The notes under the pieces: generated by a model | Told to the model about the DNA's origin: nothing | Databases searched by the model: none | The model's input: the letters and a program-made list of their open reading frames with translations, nothing else | Assembly: GCA_963728475.1 (NCBI GenBank) | Contig: CAVSKL010000003.1 | Coordinates: forward strand, 558,001-622,000 | Length of the DNA: 64,000 nt | Direction of reading: 5' to 3' | Origin: CAVSKL01 sp963728475 [NCBI: Candidatus Eiseniibacteriota bacterium] | Lineage (GTDB): Bacteria > Eisenbacteria > RBG-16-71-46 > JABDJR01 | Made by a program: the position numbers and the translations under genes | Part shown: one piece after another, positions 19,792-37,428 of the stretch | Numbering within the stretch: position 1 is the first letter of the stretch | Layout: each line of letters starts with the position of its first letter

Positions 19792-19902
19792 AGATCGGCT
19801 CGCGCCCCCGCCCCTTGCGGACCGGACGCGATGCCGGCACCGGGCCCACACCGGCCCGGGGAGATCGGGCTCCAGCGGGGCCGCCACAAGGAGGAGTTCG
19901 CC

Positions 19903-20214
19903 ATCGCGAAGAAACGCAGCAAGATTCGTTCGAAACGGCGGAAGCGAAAGCAGAGCAGCAAGACCGCCGGAACCACCACCACGTCCACCGGTCCGGCGCA
20001 GCGGCCCGACGCGGTGGTGGTGGAAGGGATCGTCATCGACAGCCTGCCCAACGCCCGGTTCAAGGTGCGGATGGAGAACGGGCACGAAATCCTGGCCCAC
20101 ATCTCGGGGAAGATGCGCAAGCACTTCATCAGGATCCTGAACGGGGACAAGGTGACGGTCGAGCTGTCCCCCTACGACCTCACCCGCGGCCGCATCACCT
20201 ATCGTTACAAGTAG
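19903..20214 (+). CDS. infA: translation initiation factor IF-1, probably initiated at AUC
   Basis: The last 70 residues are a complete IF-1 OB fold: [37 protein letters not shown] and [18 protein letters not shown] match the family closely. In front is a basic Lys/Arg tail of about 30 residues. AAGGAGG at 19888-19894 is followed by eight bases and then ATC GCG AAG AAA, where family members read M-A-K-K or M-A-K-E. There is no ATG, GTG or TTG between the ATG at 19831 and this point. I call the ATC the start; the alternative is ATG 19831, which lacks a ribosome site and adds 24 unrelated residues. Confidence 0.85.
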
Positions 20215-20342
20215 CCTTCCCGCGGGACCCTTCGCCCGGCCGCCGGCGCGCTCCGCTCCCGCGGGGGACTCTTCCCTCCCTTCCGGCGTCCATATCATTG
20301 CGAGGCAATGGGTTGTCCCGGGCGGGGAAGCCGTTCCGGGCT

Positions 20343-20358
20343 GAAAGTGTATACTTTC
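20343..20358 (+). promoter_or_regulatory. palindrome over the -10 box of the Fe-S carrier gene
   Basis: GAAAGT (20343-20348) and ACTTTC (20353-20358) form a perfect inverted repeat around GTAT. The -10 element TATACT (20350-20355) sits inside it, about 50 bases before the ATG at 20407. A repressor bound here would block polymerase, so this is a candidate operator. Which regulator is not known. Confidence 0.5.
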
Positions 20359-20406
20359 GGTCGGATATCCGGGGCGTTCCCGCCCCCCATCGCAAGGAGT
20401 CGTCAC

Positions 20407-20751
20407 ATGGCCCAGGCCCAAGCCGAAATCGTCCACGTCACCGACGCCGCCCAGGCCGAAGCGCGCCGCCTGCTTTCCGAGGAAACGGCTGAAGGGTTGG
20501 GGCTCCGCCTCGGAGTGCGGGGCGGAGGCTGCTCGGGGCTCTCCTACGAGCTGGAGTTCACCCGCCAGGAACCCGGCGACACCGTGATGGAGCTTCCGGC
20601 GGGGCTCCGCGTCTTCGTGGATCCCAAGAGCCTTCTCTACCTCAAGGGCGTAACCGTGGACTACCGGGCGGGACTCTCCGGGAGGGGCTTCACCTTCCAG
20701 AACCCGAACGCGCAGAACACCTGCGGTTGCGGGGAATCCTTCTCCGTGTGA
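20407..20751 (+). CDS. A-type iron-sulfur carrier (IscA/ErpA/SufA family)
   Basis: The 114-residue protein has the three conserved cysteines of HesB/IscA proteins: C42 in GGGCSGLSY, and C106 and C108 in the terminal TCGCGESF. The family carries [2Fe-2S] or [4Fe-4S] clusters to client enzymes. ATG 20407 has AAGGAG seven bases upstream. Its stop codon overlaps the GTG start of the YgfZ-TPR gene, a coupling that fits the known joint action of A-type carriers and YgfZ/IBA57 in [4Fe-4S] assembly. Many clients could exist here, the por enzymes among them. Confidence 0.94.
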   Translation: MAQAQAEIVHVTDAAQAEARRLLSEETAEGLGLRLGVRGGGCSGLSYELEFTRQEPGDTVMELPAGLRVFVDPKSLLYLKGVTVDYRAGLSGRGFTFQNPNAQNTCGCGESFSV

Positions 20752-22499
20752 CCGCGCCCGATCCCCGGTGCTCCCACGCCCCGGCCGAAGTGCGGGCCCT
20801 CCGCGCGCGGGCGGGGCTTTCCGTATCCGCGGTCGCGGCGGTCGCGGAGATCACCGGCCCCGACGGAGCCTCCTTCCTCGACGCCCAGCTTCCGGCGGCG
20901 GTGGCCGCGGTGCCGGTGGGGGACGGCGTCCACACCGCCTACCTGGATCGCAAGGGACGCATCACCCACCAGGTCACCCTCCTGAACCTGGGCGGATCCT
21001 TTCTGGCCCTGGCCGGGCCGCCGGCGCTGGCCCCCTTCCTGGAGAAGCTCGAGGCCTTCCACTTCCGGGAGCGCGTGGAATTCCGCGACCTTTCCCGGGA
21101 ACTTCTGGTATGGGAACTCCACGGCCCCGAGGCGCCCTCGATCCTGGCCGCGGCGAGCGGGGAGCGGCCGGAGTACGAGCCGTTCCGCCACCGCGAGCTG
21201 ACGGTGGGGGGAGCGGCGGTGCGCTTCGCCGCCGATCCCTGGACCGGGGACGTGGGGGGAAGGCTCATCCTCCCCCGCGCCTCCGCCGGCGCGGTGCGGG
21301 AGGGGCTGGAGGCGGCCGCCGCTCCCGGGGAGCTGGCCGCGCTCTCCCTCGAGGCCCTGGAGATCCTCCGGGTGGAGGGGGGGCGTCCCCGGGTGGGCGT
21401 CGACACCGACCCGCGCACCCTGGTCCTGGAACTCGACCGGGAGGACATGGTCTCCCACGACAAGGGCTGCTACCTGGGGCAGGAGACGGTGGCGCGGGTC
21501 CACTCCCGGGGCCACGTGAACCGGCTCCTTAGGGGCCTGGTGCTGGAAGGGGACGCGGCGCCGCCCCCGGGCACCCTGGTCCTCCTCGGCGAGGAGCCGG
21601 CGGGGGAGACCCGGAGCGCGGCGCTCTCGCCGAGCCTCCGGGCCCCGGTGGCGCTGGCTTTCCTGCGGCGCCGGGCGGCCGATCCGGGAACGGTGGTGCA
21701 CCTCCGCCTGGGGGGGCGGCACGTGGCGGCCACCGTTCGCGAGCTTCCCCTCTACCGGCCTCCGGGCCCCCGGGACCGGGCCGAGGCTCTCTATCGCGAG
21801 GGGCTGGCCGCATTCTCCGCCGACCGATACGAGGAAGCGCTCGACCGGTTCGAGCGGGCGCTCCTATTGGATCCGCGCCGCTACGACGCCTGGGAATCGG
21901 CGGGGGTGTGCCAGGACCGGCTGGGGCGGACCGGCGACGCCGCCGACACCATGCGCGCCCTCACCGAGGCCGACCCCGGGAACGTGATGGCGTGGACGAA
22001 CCTCAGCCGCTACGAGGCGGAGCGCGGGAACATCGAGGAGGCGGAGCGGATCAAGGGCCGGGTCACCTACCTGGTGTGGAAGCGGGAGATGGGGGAGCGC
22101 GAGGCCGAACGCCGCTCGGCGGAGGAGCGCGCGGCCCGGGCCCACGACCTGGAGGAGCGGATCGTTCTCTTCCGGCAGGTGCTGGAGCTCGACCCCGGAG
22201 ACGTGGTCGCCAACTTCGGCCTGGGCAAGGTGCTCCTGGACCTGGAACGTTGGGACGAAGCGGCCCCCTGCTTCGAGAAGGCGATCGCCGGACAGCCGGA
22301 CTACAGCATGGCTTTCAACCACCTCGGGACCTGCCTCGCCTGGTCGGGGCGGACGGAGGAGGCCCGCGAGATCCTCCGCCGCGGGATCGACGCCGCCGGC
22401 CTCCGGGGGGACTTCATCCCCAAGCGGGACATGGCCCGGAAGCTGCGGGAGCTGGATCCGGGCCCCGCCCCGGACGCGGCCGGGCCGGGAGCCCCGTAA
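20748..22499 (+). CDS. ygfZ: YgfZ/IBA57-type folate-binding Fe-S protein fused to a TPR domain
   Basis: The 583-residue protein begins with the GcvT-like fold of YgfZ (about residues 15-330). It holds the diagnostic KGCYLGQE at K239-E246, whose Cys is needed for YgfZ function in repair or assembly of Fe-S enzymes, followed by [11 protein letters not shown]. Residues about 343-575 are a tetratricopeptide array ([49 protein letters not shown]). YgfZ proteins are normally about 330 residues, so the TPR part is an added domain. GTG 20748 overlaps the upstream TGA; TTG 20727 is an alternative start. Confidence 0.9.
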
Positions 22500-24429: not shown

Positions 24430-25137
24430 CTAATCCTCTTCCAGGAGGAGGAGGGAACGGGGGTCGAGCCTCAGGTGGAGATCCTCGACGTTGGGATTCT
24501 CGTGATCCTTGAGCAGCCGGAGCTGCACCGCGTGGTCCAGGGGCTCGAGCTGGACCACCACGTCGAACCAGCTCTCGAACCGGGCCACCGGGTTCGGGAT
24601 TCCCCGGGGATGGGTGATGGGATCCTCCCGGTGGGTGAGGGCGGAGAGCCACAGCTCCACGTTGAAGTTCCGGGCGGTGTCCCGCAGCGTGGCCACCTCC
24701 GCCTCCTCGAAGTCGGACAGGTCCACCCCGTCGACCACGATCACTTCCGGATCGAAATGGGCGTGGGTGCGATAGAACTCCACGTCCCGGGTGAGCCTCT
24801 CGGGGGTGAACTCCACCCCGCGGTAGGTGTGGATGATCCGGCAGCGCTCCACCGCCAGGCTGGTGGCGGCGGCGTCGGCGAGATGGGAGGTGCGGCGGAT
24901 CTCCTGGAAGATCTCCTCGTAGAACTCGCGAACGTGGTCCACCGAGTCCTTGTTGGACACGTGGAGCACCTTGCGCTCCCGCATGAGGTCGTCGAGCGCG
25001 ATCCCCATCAGGCACGCGGTCTTGCCCACACCGGCCCGGGACGTCACCACGCCCAGGTTGCCCTTGCCGAGGCCCCCGTGGATCGATTTCTCGAACACGC
25101 GGAGGGGGCTGCGGGCGTTCACTTCCTTGGTATACAT
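24430..25137 (-). CDS. RecA/KaiC-like P-loop ATPase linked to fusA
   Basis: The 235-residue protein has a Walker A motif SRAGVGKTA at about residues 33-41 and a Walker B strand VIVVDGVD near 133. In between lie the HVSNKDSVDHVREFYEEIF helix and a LWLSALTHRED stretch, the layout of a compact RecA-type ATPase. No DNA-binding, KaiC duplication or export signal is seen. ATG 25137 follows GGAGAGG. It starts 25 bp after the EF-G stop and is probably co-transcribed with it. Its cellular role is unknown; a link to translation is only a neighbourhood inference. Confidence 0.7.
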   Translation of the reverse strand: MYTKEVNARSPLRVFEKSIHGGLGKGNLGVVTSRAGVGKTACLMGIALDDLMRERKVLHVSNKDSVDHVREFYEEIFQEIRRTSHLADAAATSLAVERCRIIHTYRGVEFTPERLTRDVEFYRTHAHFDPEVIVVDGVDLSDFEEAEVATLRDTARNFNVELWLSALTHREDPITHPRGIPNPVARFESWFDVVVQLEPLDHAVQLRLLKDHENPNVEDLHLRLDPRSLLLLEED

Positions 25138-30142: not shown

Positions 30143-33100
30143 CTAGTTGCCGGTCCGCACAACCACCATCTTCTTCGCGTAGTCCTCGCCGTTGGTGTTG
30201 AGGCGGTAGAAGTAAACGCCGCTGGCCACCGGACGCGACGCGGAGTCGGTTCCGTCCCAACGGGCCACATTCACTCCCTGCTCCGCCACGCCGCTGAACA
30301 GCGTCCGCACCAGCCGCCCGTTGAGGTCGAACACGTCCAGCTTGGCCTGGCCCCGCTGGGCCACGGTGAACTGGATCGTCCCCTTGGCGCCGCTCATGAG
30401 CGGGTTGGGGGCGAAGTTCGCCAACGCGGTCTTGAAGGCGGGCTGCCGCGGGGTCACCGGGACGTCCAGACCCGCGGTCGGGTCGGAGCACGCGCTCAGG
30501 GTGCCGGTGTAACCGAAGTAGCCGAGCACTTCACGCAGGCGCTCTGCCACCGCGGGCTCCGGAGTGTTGCCCGTGGTGAACTGGCAGTTCGAGGGATCAC
30601 GGCGGTAGTGCAGCGACAGGCCGTCGAACACGGTCCGGAAGTCCGGGCCGCCGGACACGTCGTTGACCACGGACGCGAACTGGACGGTGCCCTTGGCCGG
30701 CCCGTTGTACTCCTCGTCACCGAGGGGCGTTCCGATCCCGCCGTTGAACACGCCGAGAACGTCGAACGAACGGAGCTGCGGGCACCCGTTGCCCTGGCCC
30801 AGGTGCTGCACGCTGCGGCCGCCGCTGAGGCTGCCGGCGACCGTCGCCCCCGTCACCGGATTGATGTTCATGCAGGACACGGTGTCCTGGATGCCGGAAC
30901 CCGAGGGGCAGGTCGCGTCACGCACGGTGGCGCAGTTGAACGACACGCCCATGAGGTCGTTCATCAGATGCAACGGAGCGGGACCGGCGCCGGCCACCTC
31001 GCCCGCGATCGACTGAGCGATGTCGTCGCCGTTCAGGTACAGGTTGTTGAACCCGAGACCCGGTTCGGTGAGGGTTAGCCAGGGATTGAGGATCTCGGCG
31101 TCTTCCTTGGTCACGTCGAACGCGCCCAGGTTACCCGCGTTCCAGATGATCGACTTGTAGCCCAGGGTCTGGACCACGGTGGCCCCGTACTGGGTATTCA
31201 GGGGTCGACCGAAGGAACCCTGGTCGCTGGACGGCGCCCTCACGTCCCACCGGTCCCAGGCGGTGTTCTCGAAGTTGGCGGATCCGCCCGGGATGACGCT
31301 GGCGAGCGCGCCCTCGACGAACACCTGCGCGCCGCGGCCGTCGAAGTGGTCGACGTACAGCACGCAGTTGAACGAGGAGTCCGCGGCCATCGAGGAAGGC
31401 AGAACCTCCATCTCCTGATACACGCCGCCGGTGGTGTCCGGAGCGTTGTACCACACCGTGTTGCCGACGTACCGGGTCTTGAAGAACATGTTGATCCGGG
31501 TGCCGGCGGTGAACAGGTTGTCCGGGAAAATATCGTTCACGAGCCGGGTGGCCTGACCCTGCGGGTCGAGGTCGTTGGGGTCGCGAGCGGTATCGCTGGG
31601 ATTCGGACGTCCACCGGGGTTGCTCTCGTGGTAGGCGGTCATCCACTGGCCGGACGTCTTGGCGCCACCGCGCTCGGCACTGTCGCACCGGGCGGTGTAC
31701 CAGGTCTGGCCGCGGCTGGTGCCGGCGGCCTGGAGATAGCCGCTGGACAGCCAGGAGGAGAGAGCCGCCGCGTCGGTCCCGGGGCCGGGATCGATCGCGA
31801 ACTGGACCCACACCTCGGACCCGCCGCCGCCGCCGACCACCACCAGGGTGTCACCCAGGGAGGTGTTGGGCCCGGGCGGGTAGACCGGAAGGACGTTGTT
31901 GCAGTCCACCCGGCCGGGAGCGTCGAGACGAAGGGTCCCGTTCTGCGGGAAGGCGTCCTGGGGAACGTCGATGGTCCGCTGGGAGATGAACGGTGCGTTG
32001 GGGTCGCCGTACACGCCCATTCTCACGTCGTCGAACCAGGGAGTGCCGTTGGACACGCCGGTGCAGTTCGCGTAGTAGCGGCAGTAGGAAAGCACGCCGA
32101 GGGCGACGCGCACCTGCTCGGCGCCGACGTCGATCACCGAGCTGAACTCGAGAATGACCGAAGCACCCTCCGCGCCGCGGCGGCAGGTGGGCACGCCGCC
32201 GAAGTAGCGGACGAACCCGTCGGAGGTGATCGGACTGACGATCAGCTTGCCGGTGTTCGGGCAAACCTGGGGATACCACTGCGCGTCGGTCTGGACAAAC
32301 ACGTAGTTCAGGAGCGGCATTTCGAAGTAGCCGTCGAACTCGATGAATTTGCCCGGAGACCCGGCCACGCCCGCGGCCAGGAGGTCGATCCACGGTGAAA
32401 CCGCGATGTTGTCCTGGTAGAGGCCGTGGCCGCCCACCGACAGGTCCTCGAACACCAGCACCGAGTCCTGCAGGTCGCAGCCGCAGGGGGTCAGCACCGA
32501 GGGAAGCGAGGTGATGTCGGAGATGTTGGACCATTCGCCGCCGGGTCCGGCGGTCGGGGACTGGAGCGTCCAGCCGTCGTTGCCGGTCTCGAACGTTGCG
32601 CTATGGACGACGGCGCCGGTCATCGCGATGTTGTCCACCGCGAAGGCGCCGCAATTGGTCGGATTCCCGCCGTCCTCGTCCGAGGCCCCGCCGTCCGACA
32701 CCACGCAGAATTTCACGATGATGGTGGAGGCGACGCCGGGAAGGGTCACGCCGGGGGTGAGGGTGAGGTTGGCGTGGCCGCCCACGACACCGGTATAGGC
32801 CTTGGCCTCGGCGTCGTCACCCAGTCCGGTCGTGTCCACCACGACATAGGTGTAGTCCCATCCGTTCTCGGTCTCGTTCCGGTAGTCGTACTGCAGCGTG
32901 ATGTTCTGTCCGCCGCCCGGATAGGAGAACGAGTGTCCGATGCAGAGGTTCCAGCTCGTGCCGTACCCCTGTCCGGCCGCGTAGCAGAGGGCATCGGCCT
33001 CGCTCTGGAGCACGCCGGCCCAGAACGAGTAGTTGCCGCCCAGGCCCGCCGGGGTCCCGACGCAGGTGTCGGGAGCGCCCGCGAAGTCCGAGACGCCCAT

Positions 33101-33505
33101 GCGCCGGAAGTAGGGGAGCTCGCTGTACGAGTTGTCAATCCCGTACCACCCCTCCATGTAGGCATGGAGGGCACCGTTCTTGAAGGGGTTCACGAGAGGA
33201 TCGGAGTGGTTGAAGTTCGATCCCACCCCGGTGTCGAAGGTCCACATGGAGTCCTGGATGGCTTCCCACCGGCTGGAATCCGCCGCCCAGAACGTGCCGC
33301 CGAAATAGGTGGTTCCGGCCAGAGCCGAACCAAAAACCCCGACGTTACTGGTCGTCTTGGCAATGTCCAGATCGTGGGAGGGTCCCACCATCATGAACTT
33401 CTCGAACCCGGCGGACTGATCCACCGGGGTGGCAAAGGCGGCCACCGGCAGAAGCAGGGCCAGGGTAACCGCTAGCAGACACACGGAGATGCGCGCTTTG
33501 GACAT
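30143..33505 (-). CDS. large secreted protein, tandem paralogue A (1120 aa, FlgD-like C-terminus)
   Basis: The 1120-residue protein has a signal peptide (cleavage near AFATPVD, residue 25). A Cys-containing N-terminal region follows with GTTYFGGTFWAADSSRWEAIQ and LGGNYSFWAGVLQSEADALC, then MAM/jelly-roll-like parts ending in CGAFAVDNIAMTG and WIDLLAAG. A middle part carries NGTLRLDAPGRVDC and PDTTGGVYQEMEVLPSSM, and the end is a FlgD-like sorting domain (FAPNPLMSG, FDLNGRLVRTLF, WDGTDSASRPV, GVYFYRLN). I recognise no catalytic motif. An excellent ribosome site, TAGGAGGT, precedes ATG 33505. Exported or surface-anchored; function unknown. Confidence 0.9.
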   Translation of the reverse strand: MSKARISVCLLAVTLALLLPVAAFATPVDQSAGFEKFMMVGPSHDLDIAKTTSNVGVFGSALAGTTYFGGTFWAADSSRWEAIQDSMWTFDTGVGSNFNHSDPLVNPFKNGALHAYMEGWYGIDNSYSELPYFRRMGVSDFAGAPDTCVGTPAGLGGNYSFWAGVLQSEADALCYAAGQGYGTSWNLCIGHSFSYPGGGQNITLQYDYRNETENGWDYTYVVVDTTGLGDDAEAKAYTGVVGGHANLTLTPGVTLPGVASTIIVKFCVVSDGGASDEDGGNPTNCGAFAVDNIAMTGAVVHSATFETGNDGWTLQSPTAGPGGEWSNISDITSLPSVLTPCGCDLQDSVLVFEDLSVGGHGLYQDNIAVSPWIDLLAAGVAGSPGKFIEFDGYFEMPLLNYVFVQTDAQWYPQVCPNTGKLIVSPITSDGFVRYFGGVPTCRRGAEGASVILEFSSVIDVGAEQVRVALGVLSYCRYYANCTGVSNGTPWFDDVRMGVYGDPNAPFISQRTIDVPQDAFPQNGTLRLDAPGRVDCNNVLPVYPPGPNTSLGDTLVVVGGGGGSEVWVQFAIDPGPGTDAAALSSWLSSGYLQAAGTSRGQTWYTARCDSAERGGAKTSGQWMTAYHESNPGGRPNPSDTARDPNDLDPQGQATRLVNDIFPDNLFTAGTRINMFFKTRYVGNTVWYNAPDTTGGVYQEMEVLPSSMAADSSFNCVLYVDHFDGRGAQVFVEGALASVIPGGSANFENTAWDRWDVRAPSSDQGSFGRPLNTQYGATVVQTLGYKSIIWNAGNLGAFDVTKEDAEILNPWLTLTEPGLGFNNLYLNGDDIAQSIAGEVAGAGPAPLHLMNDLMGVSFNCATVRDATCPSGSGIQDTVSCMNINPVTGATVAGSLSGGRSVQHLGQGNGCPQLRSFDVLGVFNGGIGTPLGDEEYNGPAKGTVQFASVVNDVSGGPDFRTVFDGLSLHYRRDPSNCQFTTGNTPEPAVAERLREVLGYFGYTGTLSACSDPTAGLDVPVTPRQPAFKTALANFAPNPLMSGAKGTIQFTVAQRGQAKLDVFDLNGRLVRTLFSGVAEQGVNVARWDGTDSASRPVASGVYFYRLNTNGEDYAKKMVVVRTGN

Positions 33506-34065: not shown

Positions 34066-37000
34066 CTAGGAGCCGTTACGCACGACCACGAGCTTCTTGG
34101 AATAGTCCTCTCCGTTGGCCCGCAGACGGTAGAAGTACACGCCGCTGGCCACCGGCCGGCTCGAGGAGTCGGTGCCGTCCCAATGGACGGTGTTCACGCC
34201 CTCCCCGGCCACGCCGTCGAAGATGGTCCGCACCAGGCGGCCGTTGACGTCGAAGACGTCGACGGCGGCTTTCCCGGGCTGGGCCATGGTGAACTGCACC
34301 GTGCCCCGGGTCCCGCTCAGGAGCGGGTTGGGGGCGAAGTTCGCCAGGGCGGTCTTGAAGGCCGGCTGGCGGGGAGTGACCGGCACCGAGGTCCCGGCGG
34401 TGGGATCGGTGCAGGCGTCGATGTTGCCCGCGTACCCGAACCAGGTCAGGACCTCGCGCAGCCGCTCCTCGACCGCCGGTTCGACCGCATTGCCGGTGGT
34501 GAACGAGCAGTTCGAGGGATCCCGCCGGTAATGGACGGAGATCCCGTCCACCACCGTCTTGTAGTCGGGGCCGCCGCTCACGTCGTTGATCACCGAGGCG
34601 TAGTCGACCGTGCCCTTGACCGGGCCGTTGTACGATTCGTCCCCGACCGGAGCCCCCAACCCTCCTATGAAGGGTTGAAGCACGTCGAACGACCGTAGCT
34701 GCGGGCAACCGTTGCCCTGGGCCAGATGCTGAACGCTACGCCCGCCCGGGAGCGCCCCCGCCACGGTGGCGCCGGTGACCGGGTCCACCGGGATGCAGGC
34801 GGTGGTGTCGGCCAGCGCGTTGCTCGGAGGACACGAGGGACTCCGCACCGTTCCGCAGGTCAAGCTCACTCCCATGAAGTTGGTGAGCAGGCGTTCGGCG
34901 CTGGGCGCCGACGCCGCCTCGCGGGAGATGCTCTGGGCGATGTCGTTGCCGCTCAGGTACAGGTTGTCGAACCCCAGGCCGGGCTCGGAAAGGGTCAGCC
35001 AGGGGATCAGAATGTTTCCGTCCTCCTGCGACAGATTGACCGCGTCCAGGTTGCCGGTGTTCCACAGGATGGCCTTGTATCCCAGGACCTGGCTCACGGT
35101 GGCGCCGTACTCCGTGTTCAGCGGGCGCCCGAAGGAGCCCTGCTGGCTGTCGGGAGCGCGGACGTCGAACCGGTCCCAGGCGGTGTTCTCGGAATTGGAC
35201 GAACCGCCGGGAAGGATGCTCCCCAGCGCCGACTCGATGAAGGGTTGCGCCCCGCGGCCGTCGAAGTGGTCCACGTACAACACGCAGTTGTAGGTGGAGT
35301 CCGCGGCCATCGAGGACGGCATGACCTCCGTCTCGTACCAGGCGCCGCCCGAGGTGTCGGGATCGGTGAACCAGACGTTGCTGCCGATGTAGCGGGCCTT
35401 GTAGAAAAGGTTGACCCGCGTTCCCGGGGTGAACAGGTCGTCCGGGAAGATGTCGTTGGCCAACCGGGTGGGGCTCCCGCTCGGGGGCAGATCGTTGGGA
35501 TCCAGGTCGGTGTCCGAGCCCGAGAAGTTCGGATCGCTCTCGTGGTAGGCGGTCATCCAGACGCCGCTGTGCGGGCCGCCCGCCTCCGAGGTGTCCATCC
35601 GGGCCGAGTACCAGTCCAGACCGTTCCTATGCTCCTCGAACTGATTCTGGGCCAGCCAGGAAGCCAGCCGCGCCGAGTCGATCCTGGGTCCGGGGCGAAC
35701 GGAGAACTGGACCCGGACCTCGGAGCCGCCGGTACCGCCGCGGACGATCAGGGTGTCGCCCAGGGAGGAGCCGGCGGTCGGCGGGTAGATCGGAAGCACC
35801 TCGTTGCAGTCGATCCGGCCCGGGGCGTCGGGCCGCAGGGTGCCGTTCTCGGGGAATGCGTCCTGCGGGGTGTCCACGGTGGTGGTGGCGAGGTAGGGTG
35901 CCTCGGGGTTGCCGAACACGCCCACCCGGACGTTGTCGATCCAGGGGGTGCTGTTGGACACGCCGCTGCAGTCCGAGAAGAACCCACAATAGCTGACCAC
36001 CCCGAACGCCACCCGGAGCTGTTCCGCGCCGGGATCGATGAACGAGCCGTAGGGATCGCGCTGTCGAACCGTCCCGGTGGTGGTGCAGAGCGGGGTGTCG
36101 CCGAAGTAGGTCACGAACCCGTCGGTGGTGAAGGGGCTGAGGATCAGCTTCCCGGTGTTCGGGCAGACCTGCGGGTACCACTGCACCTCGATCAGCATGA
36201 ACACGTAGTTCAGGAAGGGCAGCTCCGTGTAGAAGCTGTACTCCAGGAACTTCCCGGGGGCGCCGACCAGATTGGCGGCCTTGAGGTCGATCCACGGCGA
36301 GACCGCCACGTTGTTTTGATCCACGTTGTGGCCGCCCAGGCTGAGATCCTCGAGCACCAGCACCGAATCCACCAGGTCGCATTCGCAATTGGTCAACGGG
36401 GCGGGAAGATCGCTCAGGCTCGCGATGTTCGACCAGTCCCCGCCGGGTCCGGCCTTCGGTGGAAGGAGCGACCATCCGCCGGCGCCGGATTCGAAATCGG
36501 AGGAACTGGAGATGCCGCCGCCGCTGAGGGCGACGTTGTCCACCGCGAACCCTCCGCACTCGGTCGGATTGAACCCGTCCTCGTCGCTGGCGCCGCTGTC
36601 GGAGACGAAGCAGAACTGGACGTCCACCGGACCGGCGTCGGATCGCATGGTGACGCCGACGGTCAGGTTCAGGTTGGCGTGACCGGACACGGTGCCGGTG
36701 TAGGCCTTGGCCTCCGCGAAGTCGCCGGCGCCGGAGGTGTCGACGAGCACGTACGTATAGTCGTACGTCGGCTCGCTATCGTTCCGGTAGTCGTACTGTA
36801 GGTTCACCGGATTCCCCGAGCCGTCGTAGTTGAACGACTGGTGGATGCAGATGTTCCAGAGGTTCCCGTAACCCTGGCCCGAGGCGTAGCACAGCTTGTC
36901 GGCTTCGGACTGCAGCACGCCGCACCAGAAGGAGTAGTTGCCGCCCAGGCCGGCCGCCGTACCCACGCAGGTATCGGGCTGGCCGGCGAAGTCGGCGATG

Positions 37001-37428
37001 CTCAACCGGCGGAAGTACGAGAGGTCGCTATAGCTGTGGTCGATGCCCACCCATCCCTCCATGTGGGCGTGGAGGGCCAGCCCGGGCGGCGCGGGATTGT
37101 TGGGTGCCCCGAACTTGTAGGGGTCCACGCTGGGGTCGCTGAAGTTGTAGTCCGACCCCACCCCGGTGTCGAAGGTCCAGGTCGAGTCCTGGATCGCCTC
37201 CCACCGGTTGGAGTCCGCGGCCCAGAAAGTGCCGCCGAAGAAGGTCGTTCCCTGGGCGGCGGACTGGAAGATCCCCCGGTCGTTCGCGGAAGAGATCCCG
37301 GGCCCCGGTTCCGTCCGATTGATCATCCGAAAGTCCGGGAGCCCATCAGCTTGGGTCGCCGGGCGTGCCCAACTCACCGCCGCCCAGGCCGCGAGCAGGA
37401 TACAGGTCATCAGCAATTTGCGATGCAT
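34066..37428 (-). CDS. large secreted protein, tandem paralogue B (1120 aa, FlgD-like C-terminus)
   Basis: This 1120-residue protein is a full-length homologue of paralogue A and, by chance or conversion, has the same length. It has a signal peptide (residues 1-21), the same opening motif GTTFFGGTFWAADSNRWEAIQ, the same LGGNYSFWCGVLQSEADKLC block, the CGGFAVDNVALSGG end of the jelly-roll part, PDTSGGAWYETEVMPSSM in the middle and the FlgD-like end (FAPNPLLSG, FDVNGRLVRTIF, WDGTDSSSRPV, GVYFYRLR). Divergence is greatest near the N-terminus. ATG 37428 follows GGAGGT. No enzyme motif is recognised. Confidence 0.9.
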   Translation of the reverse strand: MHRKLLMTCILLAAWAAVSWARPATQADGLPDFRMINRTEPGPGISSANDRGIFQSAAQGTTFFGGTFWAADSNRWEAIQDSTWTFDTGVGSDYNFSDPSVDPYKFGAPNNPAPPGLALHAHMEGWVGIDHSYSDLSYFRRLSIADFAGQPDTCVGTAAGLGGNYSFWCGVLQSEADKLCYASGQGYGNLWNICIHQSFNYDGSGNPVNLQYDYRNDSEPTYDYTYVLVDTSGAGDFAEAKAYTGTVSGHANLNLTVGVTMRSDAGPVDVQFCFVSDSGASDEDGFNPTECGGFAVDNVALSGGGISSSSDFESGAGGWSLLPPKAGPGGDWSNIASLSDLPAPLTNCECDLVDSVLVLEDLSLGGHNVDQNNVAVSPWIDLKAANLVGAPGKFLEYSFYTELPFLNYVFMLIEVQWYPQVCPNTGKLILSPFTTDGFVTYFGDTPLCTTTGTVRQRDPYGSFIDPGAEQLRVAFGVVSYCGFFSDCSGVSNSTPWIDNVRVGVFGNPEAPYLATTTVDTPQDAFPENGTLRPDAPGRIDCNEVLPIYPPTAGSSLGDTLIVRGGTGGSEVRVQFSVRPGPRIDSARLASWLAQNQFEEHRNGLDWYSARMDTSEAGGPHSGVWMTAYHESDPNFSGSDTDLDPNDLPPSGSPTRLANDIFPDDLFTPGTRVNLFYKARYIGSNVWFTDPDTSGGAWYETEVMPSSMAADSTYNCVLYVDHFDGRGAQPFIESALGSILPGGSSNSENTAWDRFDVRAPDSQQGSFGRPLNTEYGATVSQVLGYKAILWNTGNLDAVNLSQEDGNILIPWLTLSEPGLGFDNLYLSGNDIAQSISREAASAPSAERLLTNFMGVSLTCGTVRSPSCPPSNALADTTACIPVDPVTGATVAGALPGGRSVQHLAQGNGCPQLRSFDVLQPFIGGLGAPVGDESYNGPVKGTVDYASVINDVSGGPDYKTVVDGISVHYRRDPSNCSFTTGNAVEPAVEERLREVLTWFGYAGNIDACTDPTAGTSVPVTPRQPAFKTALANFAPNPLLSGTRGTVQFTMAQPGKAAVDVFDVNGRLVRTIFDGVAGEGVNTVHWDGTDSSSRPVASGVYFYRLRANGEDYSKKLVVVRNGS

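What the first reader, a model, noticed from the sequence alone, without database searches (positions are those of the whole stretch)
19888..19911. infA appears to start with AUC
A perfect AAGGAGG stands eight bases before ATC GCG AAG AAA, exactly where IF-1 proteins begin Met-Ala-Lys. There is no ATG, GTG or TTG in frame between this point and ATG 19831, which has no ribosome site and would add 24 unrelated residues. Seen in the sequence: the site, the spacing and the codon. Known: infC, for IF-3, uses AUU for autoregulation in E. coli. Inference: a non-canonical start in infA could couple IF-1 levels to start-codon discrimination. A single sequencing error (G read as C) would also explain it.
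Basis: partly seen in the sequence, partly recalled or inferred. Interest (0 to 1): 0.68.

Follow-up and report, generated by a model that had tools for sequence, protein, structure and literature searches.

The report
IF-1 gene starting with AUC

Summary
AAGGAGG (19888-19894) stands 8 nt before ATC 19903, with no ATG, GTG or TTG in frame back to ATG 19831. SD plus ATC alone is cheap here: GGAGG followed by ATC opening 60+ codons was counted 25 times in the window. Comparison decides. The nearest relative found, a Candidatus Eisenbacteria genome with one infA match and the same infA-erpA order, has AAGGAGG-6 nt-ATC GCT AAA, its SD in another reading frame. A sequencing error is therefore unlikely.

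Non-canonical infA starts recur. In one Actinomycetota order 30 of 30 loci read lack ATG/GTG/TTG near the IF-1 core (29 ATT, 1 ATC); 26 have none in frame at all. In Acidimicrobiia 68 of 110 loci read lack one near the core, 56 with CTG at one column. Controls: 148 of 148 infA genes in three other phyla, and every rpmJ and rpsM located, use ATG, GTG or TTG. infC, by best SD, mostly starts ATT, ATC or ATA in Eisenbacteria and Acidimicrobiia.

Best reading: infA is under infC-like start-codon control by IF3 (with IF1). The start is supported by comparison; regulation is inferred.

The parts
19888..19894 (+). Shine-Dalgarno AAGGAGG
   Evidence: the same 7-mer precedes ATC in the relative L113 at 6 nt spacing
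19903..19905 (+). proposed AUC start codon of infA
   Evidence: ATC in the same column of L113; TTG one column on in L114 and L115 when 20 upstream codons are included
19903..20214 (+). infA, 103-codon IF-1 with stop TAG
   Evidence: TIGR00008 116.7 bits, PF01176 95.5 bits
19903..20007 (+). basic N-terminal extension, about 35 residues, before the IF-1 OB-fold core
   Evidence: match to TIGR00008 begins at residue 36; loosely alignable to L113, L114, L115
20008..20211 (+). IF-1 core
   Evidence: best segment 91% identical to the nearest relative
19831..19833 (+). upstream in-frame ATG, rejected as start
   Evidence: no SD scored for it; upstream peptide not conserved
20014..20022 (+). three in-frame GTG codons at the edge of the core, rejected as start
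   Evidence: no SD seen by eye before them (not scored by script); a start there would delete the extension
20308..20751 (+). ErpA/IscA-type Fe-S protein ORF next to infA; its likely ATG is near 20407 (inferred from the translation)
   Evidence: PF01521, TIGR00049; directly follows infA in G001 too

Best explanation
infA in this genome starts at AUC 19903, read by the initiator fMet-tRNA and carried by a full SD. Because IF3, acting with IF1, destabilises initiation on codons other than AUG, GUG and UUG, translation of infA should fall when initiation factors are plentiful and rise when they are scarce, as is known for infC. Since infC in the same phylum also seems to start with AUU or AUC, one discrimination step would set IF-1 and IF-3 together. 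The start site is supported by comparison; the feedback is inferred.
For: Start site: AAGGAGG-8-ATC with no canonical codon nearby. Nearest relative L113/G001 has AAGGAGG-6-ATC; 8 versus 6 nt puts the SD in different reading frames, so it is kept as DNA and not as codons. With 20 upstream codons included, the two ATC codons fall in one column and the peptides agree from there (IAK) but not before. G001 has one infA match and the same infA-erpA order. L114 and L115 start with TTG behind AAGGAG at nearly the same column. Recurrence: order of G210, 30 of 30 loci read without a canonical codon within 6 residues of the core (29 ATT, 1 ATC), 26 with none in frame back to the stop. Acidimicrobiia: 68 of 110 loci read, 56 of them CTG at one column; 31 of 110 have none in frame at all; of the 56, 34 have GGAG and 17 AGGTG at SD distance. 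Eisenbacteria G036: CTG, none in frame. Specificity: 0 of 148 in three other phyla; rpmJ and rpsM canonical wherever located. infC by best SD: Eisenbacteria 16 ATT, 11 ATC of 30; Acidimicrobiia 16 ATC, 13 ATA of 30. Print: IF3 represses starts other than ATG, GTG, TTG and its own ATT/ATC gene (PMC5472188, passages); IF1 and IF3 act as quality-control checkpoints (PMC13345285, passages).
Against: Only one other member of this AUC clade was found. The window frame and the G001 frame are open further upstream (ATG 19831; GTG 11 codons before ATC), so the AUC start itself is not forced by a stop codon. Most Eisenbacteria infA (37 of 40 loci including the window) have ATG, GTG or TTG. SD+ATC is common by chance. 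In the ATT order 6 of 30 loci have no exact SD match of 4 or more. No unusual leader structure in the window (z -0.57 and 0.75). No expression, proteomic or ribosome-profiling data. How IF1 discriminates is called unclear in print, and its effect on AUC was not tested. For CUG: a review lists only AUG, GUG and UUG as the codons spared by IF3 (PMC4611024, passage) without naming CUG, and one study saw no reporter expression from CUG in chloroplasts or E. coli (PMC9845219, passage).
Confidence: 0.6

Rival explanations
1. AUC start is real but only lowers IF-1 output constitutively; there is no feedback. A weak start with a strong SD simply fixes a low level.
For: Weak but canonical starts are common for infA in this phylum (TTG 14, GTG 7, ATG 8 of the 29 loci with a canonical codon near the core) and for rpsM (GTG 15, TTG 12, ATG 2 of 29). 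Chloroplast infA uses UUG, and changing it to AUG is reported to raise translation 300-fold (PMC9845219 citing Hirose 1999, passages).
Against: If only weakness were wanted, UUG would do; in whole groups AUU/AUC or CUG is seen instead, while rpmJ and rpsM in the same loci are always AUG, GUG or UUG where located.
Confidence: 0.28
2. Translation starts at ATG 19831 and adds 24 residues; ATC is an ordinary isoleucine.
For: ATG 19831 is in frame with no stop between.
Against: No SD scored; the relative has no ATG there and the peptides before ATC differ (KEEFA versus IRRLV).
Confidence: 0.06
3. Sequencing or assembly error: the true codon is ATG.
For: One base would do it; reads were not available.
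Against: An independent, divergent genome has ATC at the same place; other groups show AUU or CUG in dozens of genomes.
Confidence: 0.04
4. Initiation at GTG 20014/20017/20020, giving a short IF-1 without the extension.
For: GTG codons lie in frame at the edge of the core.
Against: No SD visible; the SD-ATC pair is conserved instead.
Confidence: 0.02

Closest known systems
infC (IF-3) with AUU/AUC start, autoregulated by IF3 (PMC5472188, passages)
   Same: Gene of an initiation factor, strong SD, start codon outside AUG/GUG/UUG; in the same phylum infC itself, by best SD, starts ATT or ATC in 27 of 30 loci
   Different: Here the product is IF-1; the discriminator shown in print is IF3, so control would be cross-regulation by IF3 plus a possible contribution of IF1; not shown experimentally
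Streptomyces sigR with GTC start repressed by IF3 (PMC5472188, passages)
   Same: Non-canonical start, misannotated in databases, in an actinobacterium
   Different: sigR encodes a sigma factor; its repression by IF3 was shown with infC mutants and overexpression
Chloroplast infA with UUG start (PMC9845219, passages, citing Hirose 1999)
   Same: IF-1 gene with a weak start that limits expression
   Different: UUG belongs to the canonical class in bacteria; plastid, not bacterial
E. coli infA (PMC6511841, passages)
   Same: IF-1; the three factors are kept about equimolar
   Different: Control described there is at promoters, mRNA half-life and cold-shock translational bias; no non-canonical start is mentioned in the passages seen

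Membership tests
bacterial IF-1 (infA, TIGR00008) | score over the curated cut-off along the OB-fold core | tested here: met
   116.7 bits against 61.15, model positions 3-69
bacterial IF-1 (infA, TIGR00008) | sole copy in the genome, hence the working factor | tested here: inconclusive
   no genome held for the window; nearest relative G001 has one match, completeness unknown
gene with an IF3-discriminated start (infC kind) | start codon other than AUG, GUG, UUG at the SD-defined site | tested here: met
   ATC with AAGGAGG in window and L113
gene with an IF3-discriminated start (infC kind) | no canonical alternative start in frame | tested here: inconclusive
   window and G001 frames are open upstream; in other groups there is none in frame: 31 of 110 Acidimicrobiia loci, 26 of 30 in the order of G210
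gene with an IF3-discriminated start (infC kind) | expression falls with IF3 and rises when ATC is changed to ATG | not testable with these tools
   needs reporters and strains
gene with an IF3-discriminated start (infC kind) | negative feedback of the product on its own translation | not testable with these tools
   needs IF-1 titration

The most novel reading that the evidence does not exclude
In several bacterial lineages infA and infC both carry start codons that the IF3/IF1 checkpoint rejects, so one discrimination step feeds back on both genes and holds IF-1 and IF-3 in ratio: a built-in stoichiometry control not reported for infA in E. coli in the passages seen.
Probability: 0.45. Interest if true: 0.85.

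Novelty: new variant of a known kind. Interest (0 to 1): 0.76.

Why it matters
Few bacterial genes are well known to start outside AUG/GUG/UUG; in E. coli infC and pcnB are the two AUU cases (PMC9410913, passage). Finding the same device on infA in several lineages would extend it to a second initiation factor. It also offers a testable answer to how the factors stay near equimolar although their genes lie apart, which a study in E. coli calls not obvious (PMC6511841, passages). In practice, gene callers that allow only ATG, GTG and TTG could truncate, extend or miss infA in these groups (inference); such misannotation is reported for infC and sigR (PMC5472188, passages).

Tried and rejected
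Tried without result: whole genome of the window (none held); a KaiC-like neighbour as lineage probe (40 pattern matches, no relative); Rfam and tRNA scans of the window (nothing); promoter scan around infA (none); RNA folding of the leader (no better than shuffles); viral contigs for closer relatives (22 loci, best 63% identity; all 22 have a canonical infA start).

Considered and rejected: ATG 19831, GTG 20014, sequencing error, a decayed paralogue (best segment 91% identical to the relative, one match there). Structure prediction was not used because the question is the start codon.

Cautions on counts. Acidimicrobiia: 110 of the 147 listed matches were read. The 37 not read include 24 from a small-genome group (picked out by E-value and size) in which all 8 loci read have TTG, so 68 of 110 overstates the share in the class; if all 37 were canonical it would be 68 of 147. 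Actinomycetota sample: 69 loci read; 55 canonical near the core, 6 ATT with none in frame, 8 with a canonical codon only further up, mostly N-terminal extensions. Control phyla: 49, 49 and 50 loci read, of 100, 95 and 74 genomes with a match. The 6-residue rule counts three Acidimicrobiia (L338, L340, L341) with ATC and an in-frame ATG or TTG 7 residues up as non-canonical, which is doubtful, and one (L297) with ATG and CTG two codons apart as canonical. Seven Acidimicrobiia show GTA, GTC or GTT in the start column, an unproven start. G011 was scored by its inner GTG although its ATG 29 residues up is likelier. Control genes were found by sequence patterns, so loci without a pattern match were dropped (for example rpmJ was found in 66 of 110 Acidimicrobiia loci). 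For infC the start was taken as the codon with the best SD, so some may be wrong. In one search the sequences were given from their proposed starts, which forces the first column; one search repeats it with upstream codons. The number of independent origins was not determined.

Literature: searched full texts with infA, IF1 or infC together with non-canonical, CUG, AUU, alternative or non-AUG starts; AUC with infA was not a search term, and several lists were cut. No bacterial infA with such a start was seen in the listings or in the passages read. Subscription journals are mostly not held; arXiv 2008.10758 (genes preferring non-AUG starts) was seen only as a reference.

Full report
What is there. 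Window 19888-19894 reads AAGGAGG, followed by 8 nt and ATC GCG AAG AAA; the frame ends at TAG 20212-20214. The 103-codon product is IF-1 (TIGR00008 116.7 bits; Pfam 95.5 bits). The family match starts at residue 36, after a basic, Lys/Arg-rich extension. The nearest in-frame ATG, GTG or TTG upstream is ATG 19831, 24 codons up, with no SD scored. The next gene is an ErpA/IscA-type Fe-S protein.

Is it more than chance? Not from SD plus ATC alone. In this 71% GC window GGAGG followed 4-10 nt later by ATC opening at least 60 codons was counted 25 times, against 15 times with ATG. What matters is that this pair stands at the head of a known gene that has no other plausible start, and that it is conserved.

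The relative. The genome-contig scan with the IF-1 protein put a Candidatus Eisenbacteria record first, 91% identical over residues 29-102 of the query (L001, the same stretch as L113). It reads AAGGAGG-CTCGTT-ATC GCT AAA, its genome has one infA match, and erpA follows infA there as well; its ErpA is the closest among the 35 of 47 genomes with a match (65% identity, next 55%). The spacer is 6 nt against 8, so the SD falls in different frames in the two genomes: AAG GAG GAG TTC GCC ATC against ATA AGG AGG CTC GTT ATC. In the DNA alignment of the two the inner gaps before ATC are 3, 2, 7 and 5 columns and those between ATC and the core 6 and 3; this fits coding from ATC on but is a small sample. 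With 20 upstream codons included, both ATC codons fall in one column. Two further genomes (L114, L115) have TTG behind AAGGAG one column on.

The phylum. infA was found in 39 of 47 held genomes, once each. With the window, 40 loci: 37 have an ATG, GTG or TTG start, two ATC (window, G001) and one CTG (G036, no canonical codon in frame back to the stop). The AUC start is therefore a feature of a small group, known from two members.

Recurrence elsewhere. Of 79 of the 80 loci (without L001), 25 have no ATG, GTG or TTG within 6 residues of the core: 24 CTG and one ATC, 12 of the 25 with none in frame at all; most bear Acidimicrobiia or Actinomycetota titles. I sampled further. Acidimicrobiia (142 of 148 genomes with infA; 110 of 147 matches read): 68 loci lack a canonical codon near the core, 56 of these with CTG at one column; 31 of 110 have none in frame back to the stop. 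Of the 56, 34 have GGAG and 17 AGGTG at SD distance. A small-genome group was read thinly, and all 8 of its loci read have TTG, so the share in the class is lower than 68 of 110. Actinomycetota at large (147 of 149 genomes with infA, 69 loci read): 55 canonical, 6 ATT with none in frame, 8 with a canonical codon only further up. The order of one of the ATT genomes (a match in 35 of 35 genomes, 30 loci read): 30 of 30 without a canonical codon near the core, 29 ATT and 1 ATC, 26 with none in frame at all; 6 of the 30 have no exact SD match. The ATT-to-ATC exchange and the CTG/GTA/ATC mix suggest that the codon class, not one codon, is kept; this is inference.

Controls. In the phyla of G055, G054 and G057, 49 of 49, 49 of 49 and 50 of 50 loci read have ATG, GTG or TTG within 6 residues of the core. 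rpmJ and rpsM, read at the column fixed by their N-terminal motif so that any codon could appear, were canonical in every locus where they were found: rpmJ 17, 58, 78, 66 and rpsM 29, 57, 78, 85 in Eisenbacteria, Actinomycetota, loci and Acidimicrobiia; rpmJ 29 and rpsM 18 in the ATT order; also in the control phyla. All 22 viral IF-1 genes were canonical. So the method and the genomes do not produce non-canonical starts in general.

infC as positive control. By best SD, infC starts ATT 16, ATC 11, GTG 2, undecided 1 of 30 loci in Eisenbacteria, and ATC 16, ATA 13, TTG 1 of 30 in Acidimicrobiia. These lineages thus appear to use such codons on the gene where they are known to work.

Mechanism. 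[quoted passage not shown] infC starts ATT in E. coli and ATC in Streptomyces and is autoregulated (PMC5472188, passages). AUG, GUG and UUG are described as the codons not discriminated by IF3 (PMC4611024, passages). IF1 and IF3 act together as checkpoints, while how IF1 does so is called unclear (PMC13345285, passages). That CUG is discriminated by IF3 is recalled, not from a call; one study saw no expression from CUG in E. coli or chloroplasts (PMC9845219, passage). From this follows the proposal: infA with AUC, AUU or CUG is repressed when IF3 (and perhaps IF1) is ample and released when it is scarce, tying IF-1 to IF-3. In E. coli the factors are about equimolar and the way this is held is described as not obvious (PMC6511841, passages). 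Shown by comparison: gene, SD, codon, conservation, recurrence, specificity. Inferred: initiation at the codon in cells, IF3/IF1 dependence, feedback. Constitutive weakness is the main rival.

Novelty. No bacterial infA with an AUC, AUU or CUG start was seen in the searches listed (several lists were cut); the nearest is chloroplast infA with UUG (PMC9845219, passages). The device is known from infC, so this is a new variant of a known kind.

Noticed in passing
window 19903-20007; L113, L112, L114, L115, L117-L122: IF-1 of one group of Eisenbacteria carries a Lys/Arg-rich N-terminal tail of about 26-35 residues. It recalls the basic N-terminal tail of eIF1A, which contacts tRNAi, mRNA or 18S rRNA in the closed complex (PMC5756025, start of abstract in the listing); no relation was tested.
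   Followed up: partly
L210, L220, L222, L224, L232, L270, L271: A subgroup of Acidimicrobiia has GTA, GTC or GTT where sisters have the CTG start of infA; the start is unclear and may be even less canonical.
   Followed up: partly
L080 (Acidimicrobiaceae UBA10347): infA frame closed 15 codons upstream of the core with ATC ATC GCT at the usual start place and no ATG, GTG or TTG in frame: a second AUC case outside Eisenbacteria, with only a weak SD.
   Followed up: partly
L561-L590: infC in Acidimicrobiia seems to start with ATA nearly as often as with ATC (13 and 16 of 30 by best SD).
   Followed up: no
window 30143-33505 and 34066-37428: Two neighbouring 1120-residue ORFs on the minus strand share a similar stretch near their starts (FGGTFWAADS.RWEAIQDS), apparently a tandem pair.
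   Followed up: no
window 24430-25137 (-): KaiC/AAA-like 235-residue protein (matches below curated cut-offs) for which the pattern scan of genome contigs confirmed no relative.
   Followed up: no
window 20727-22499: One ORF joins a GCV_T folate-binding domain to TPR repeats.
   Followed up: no
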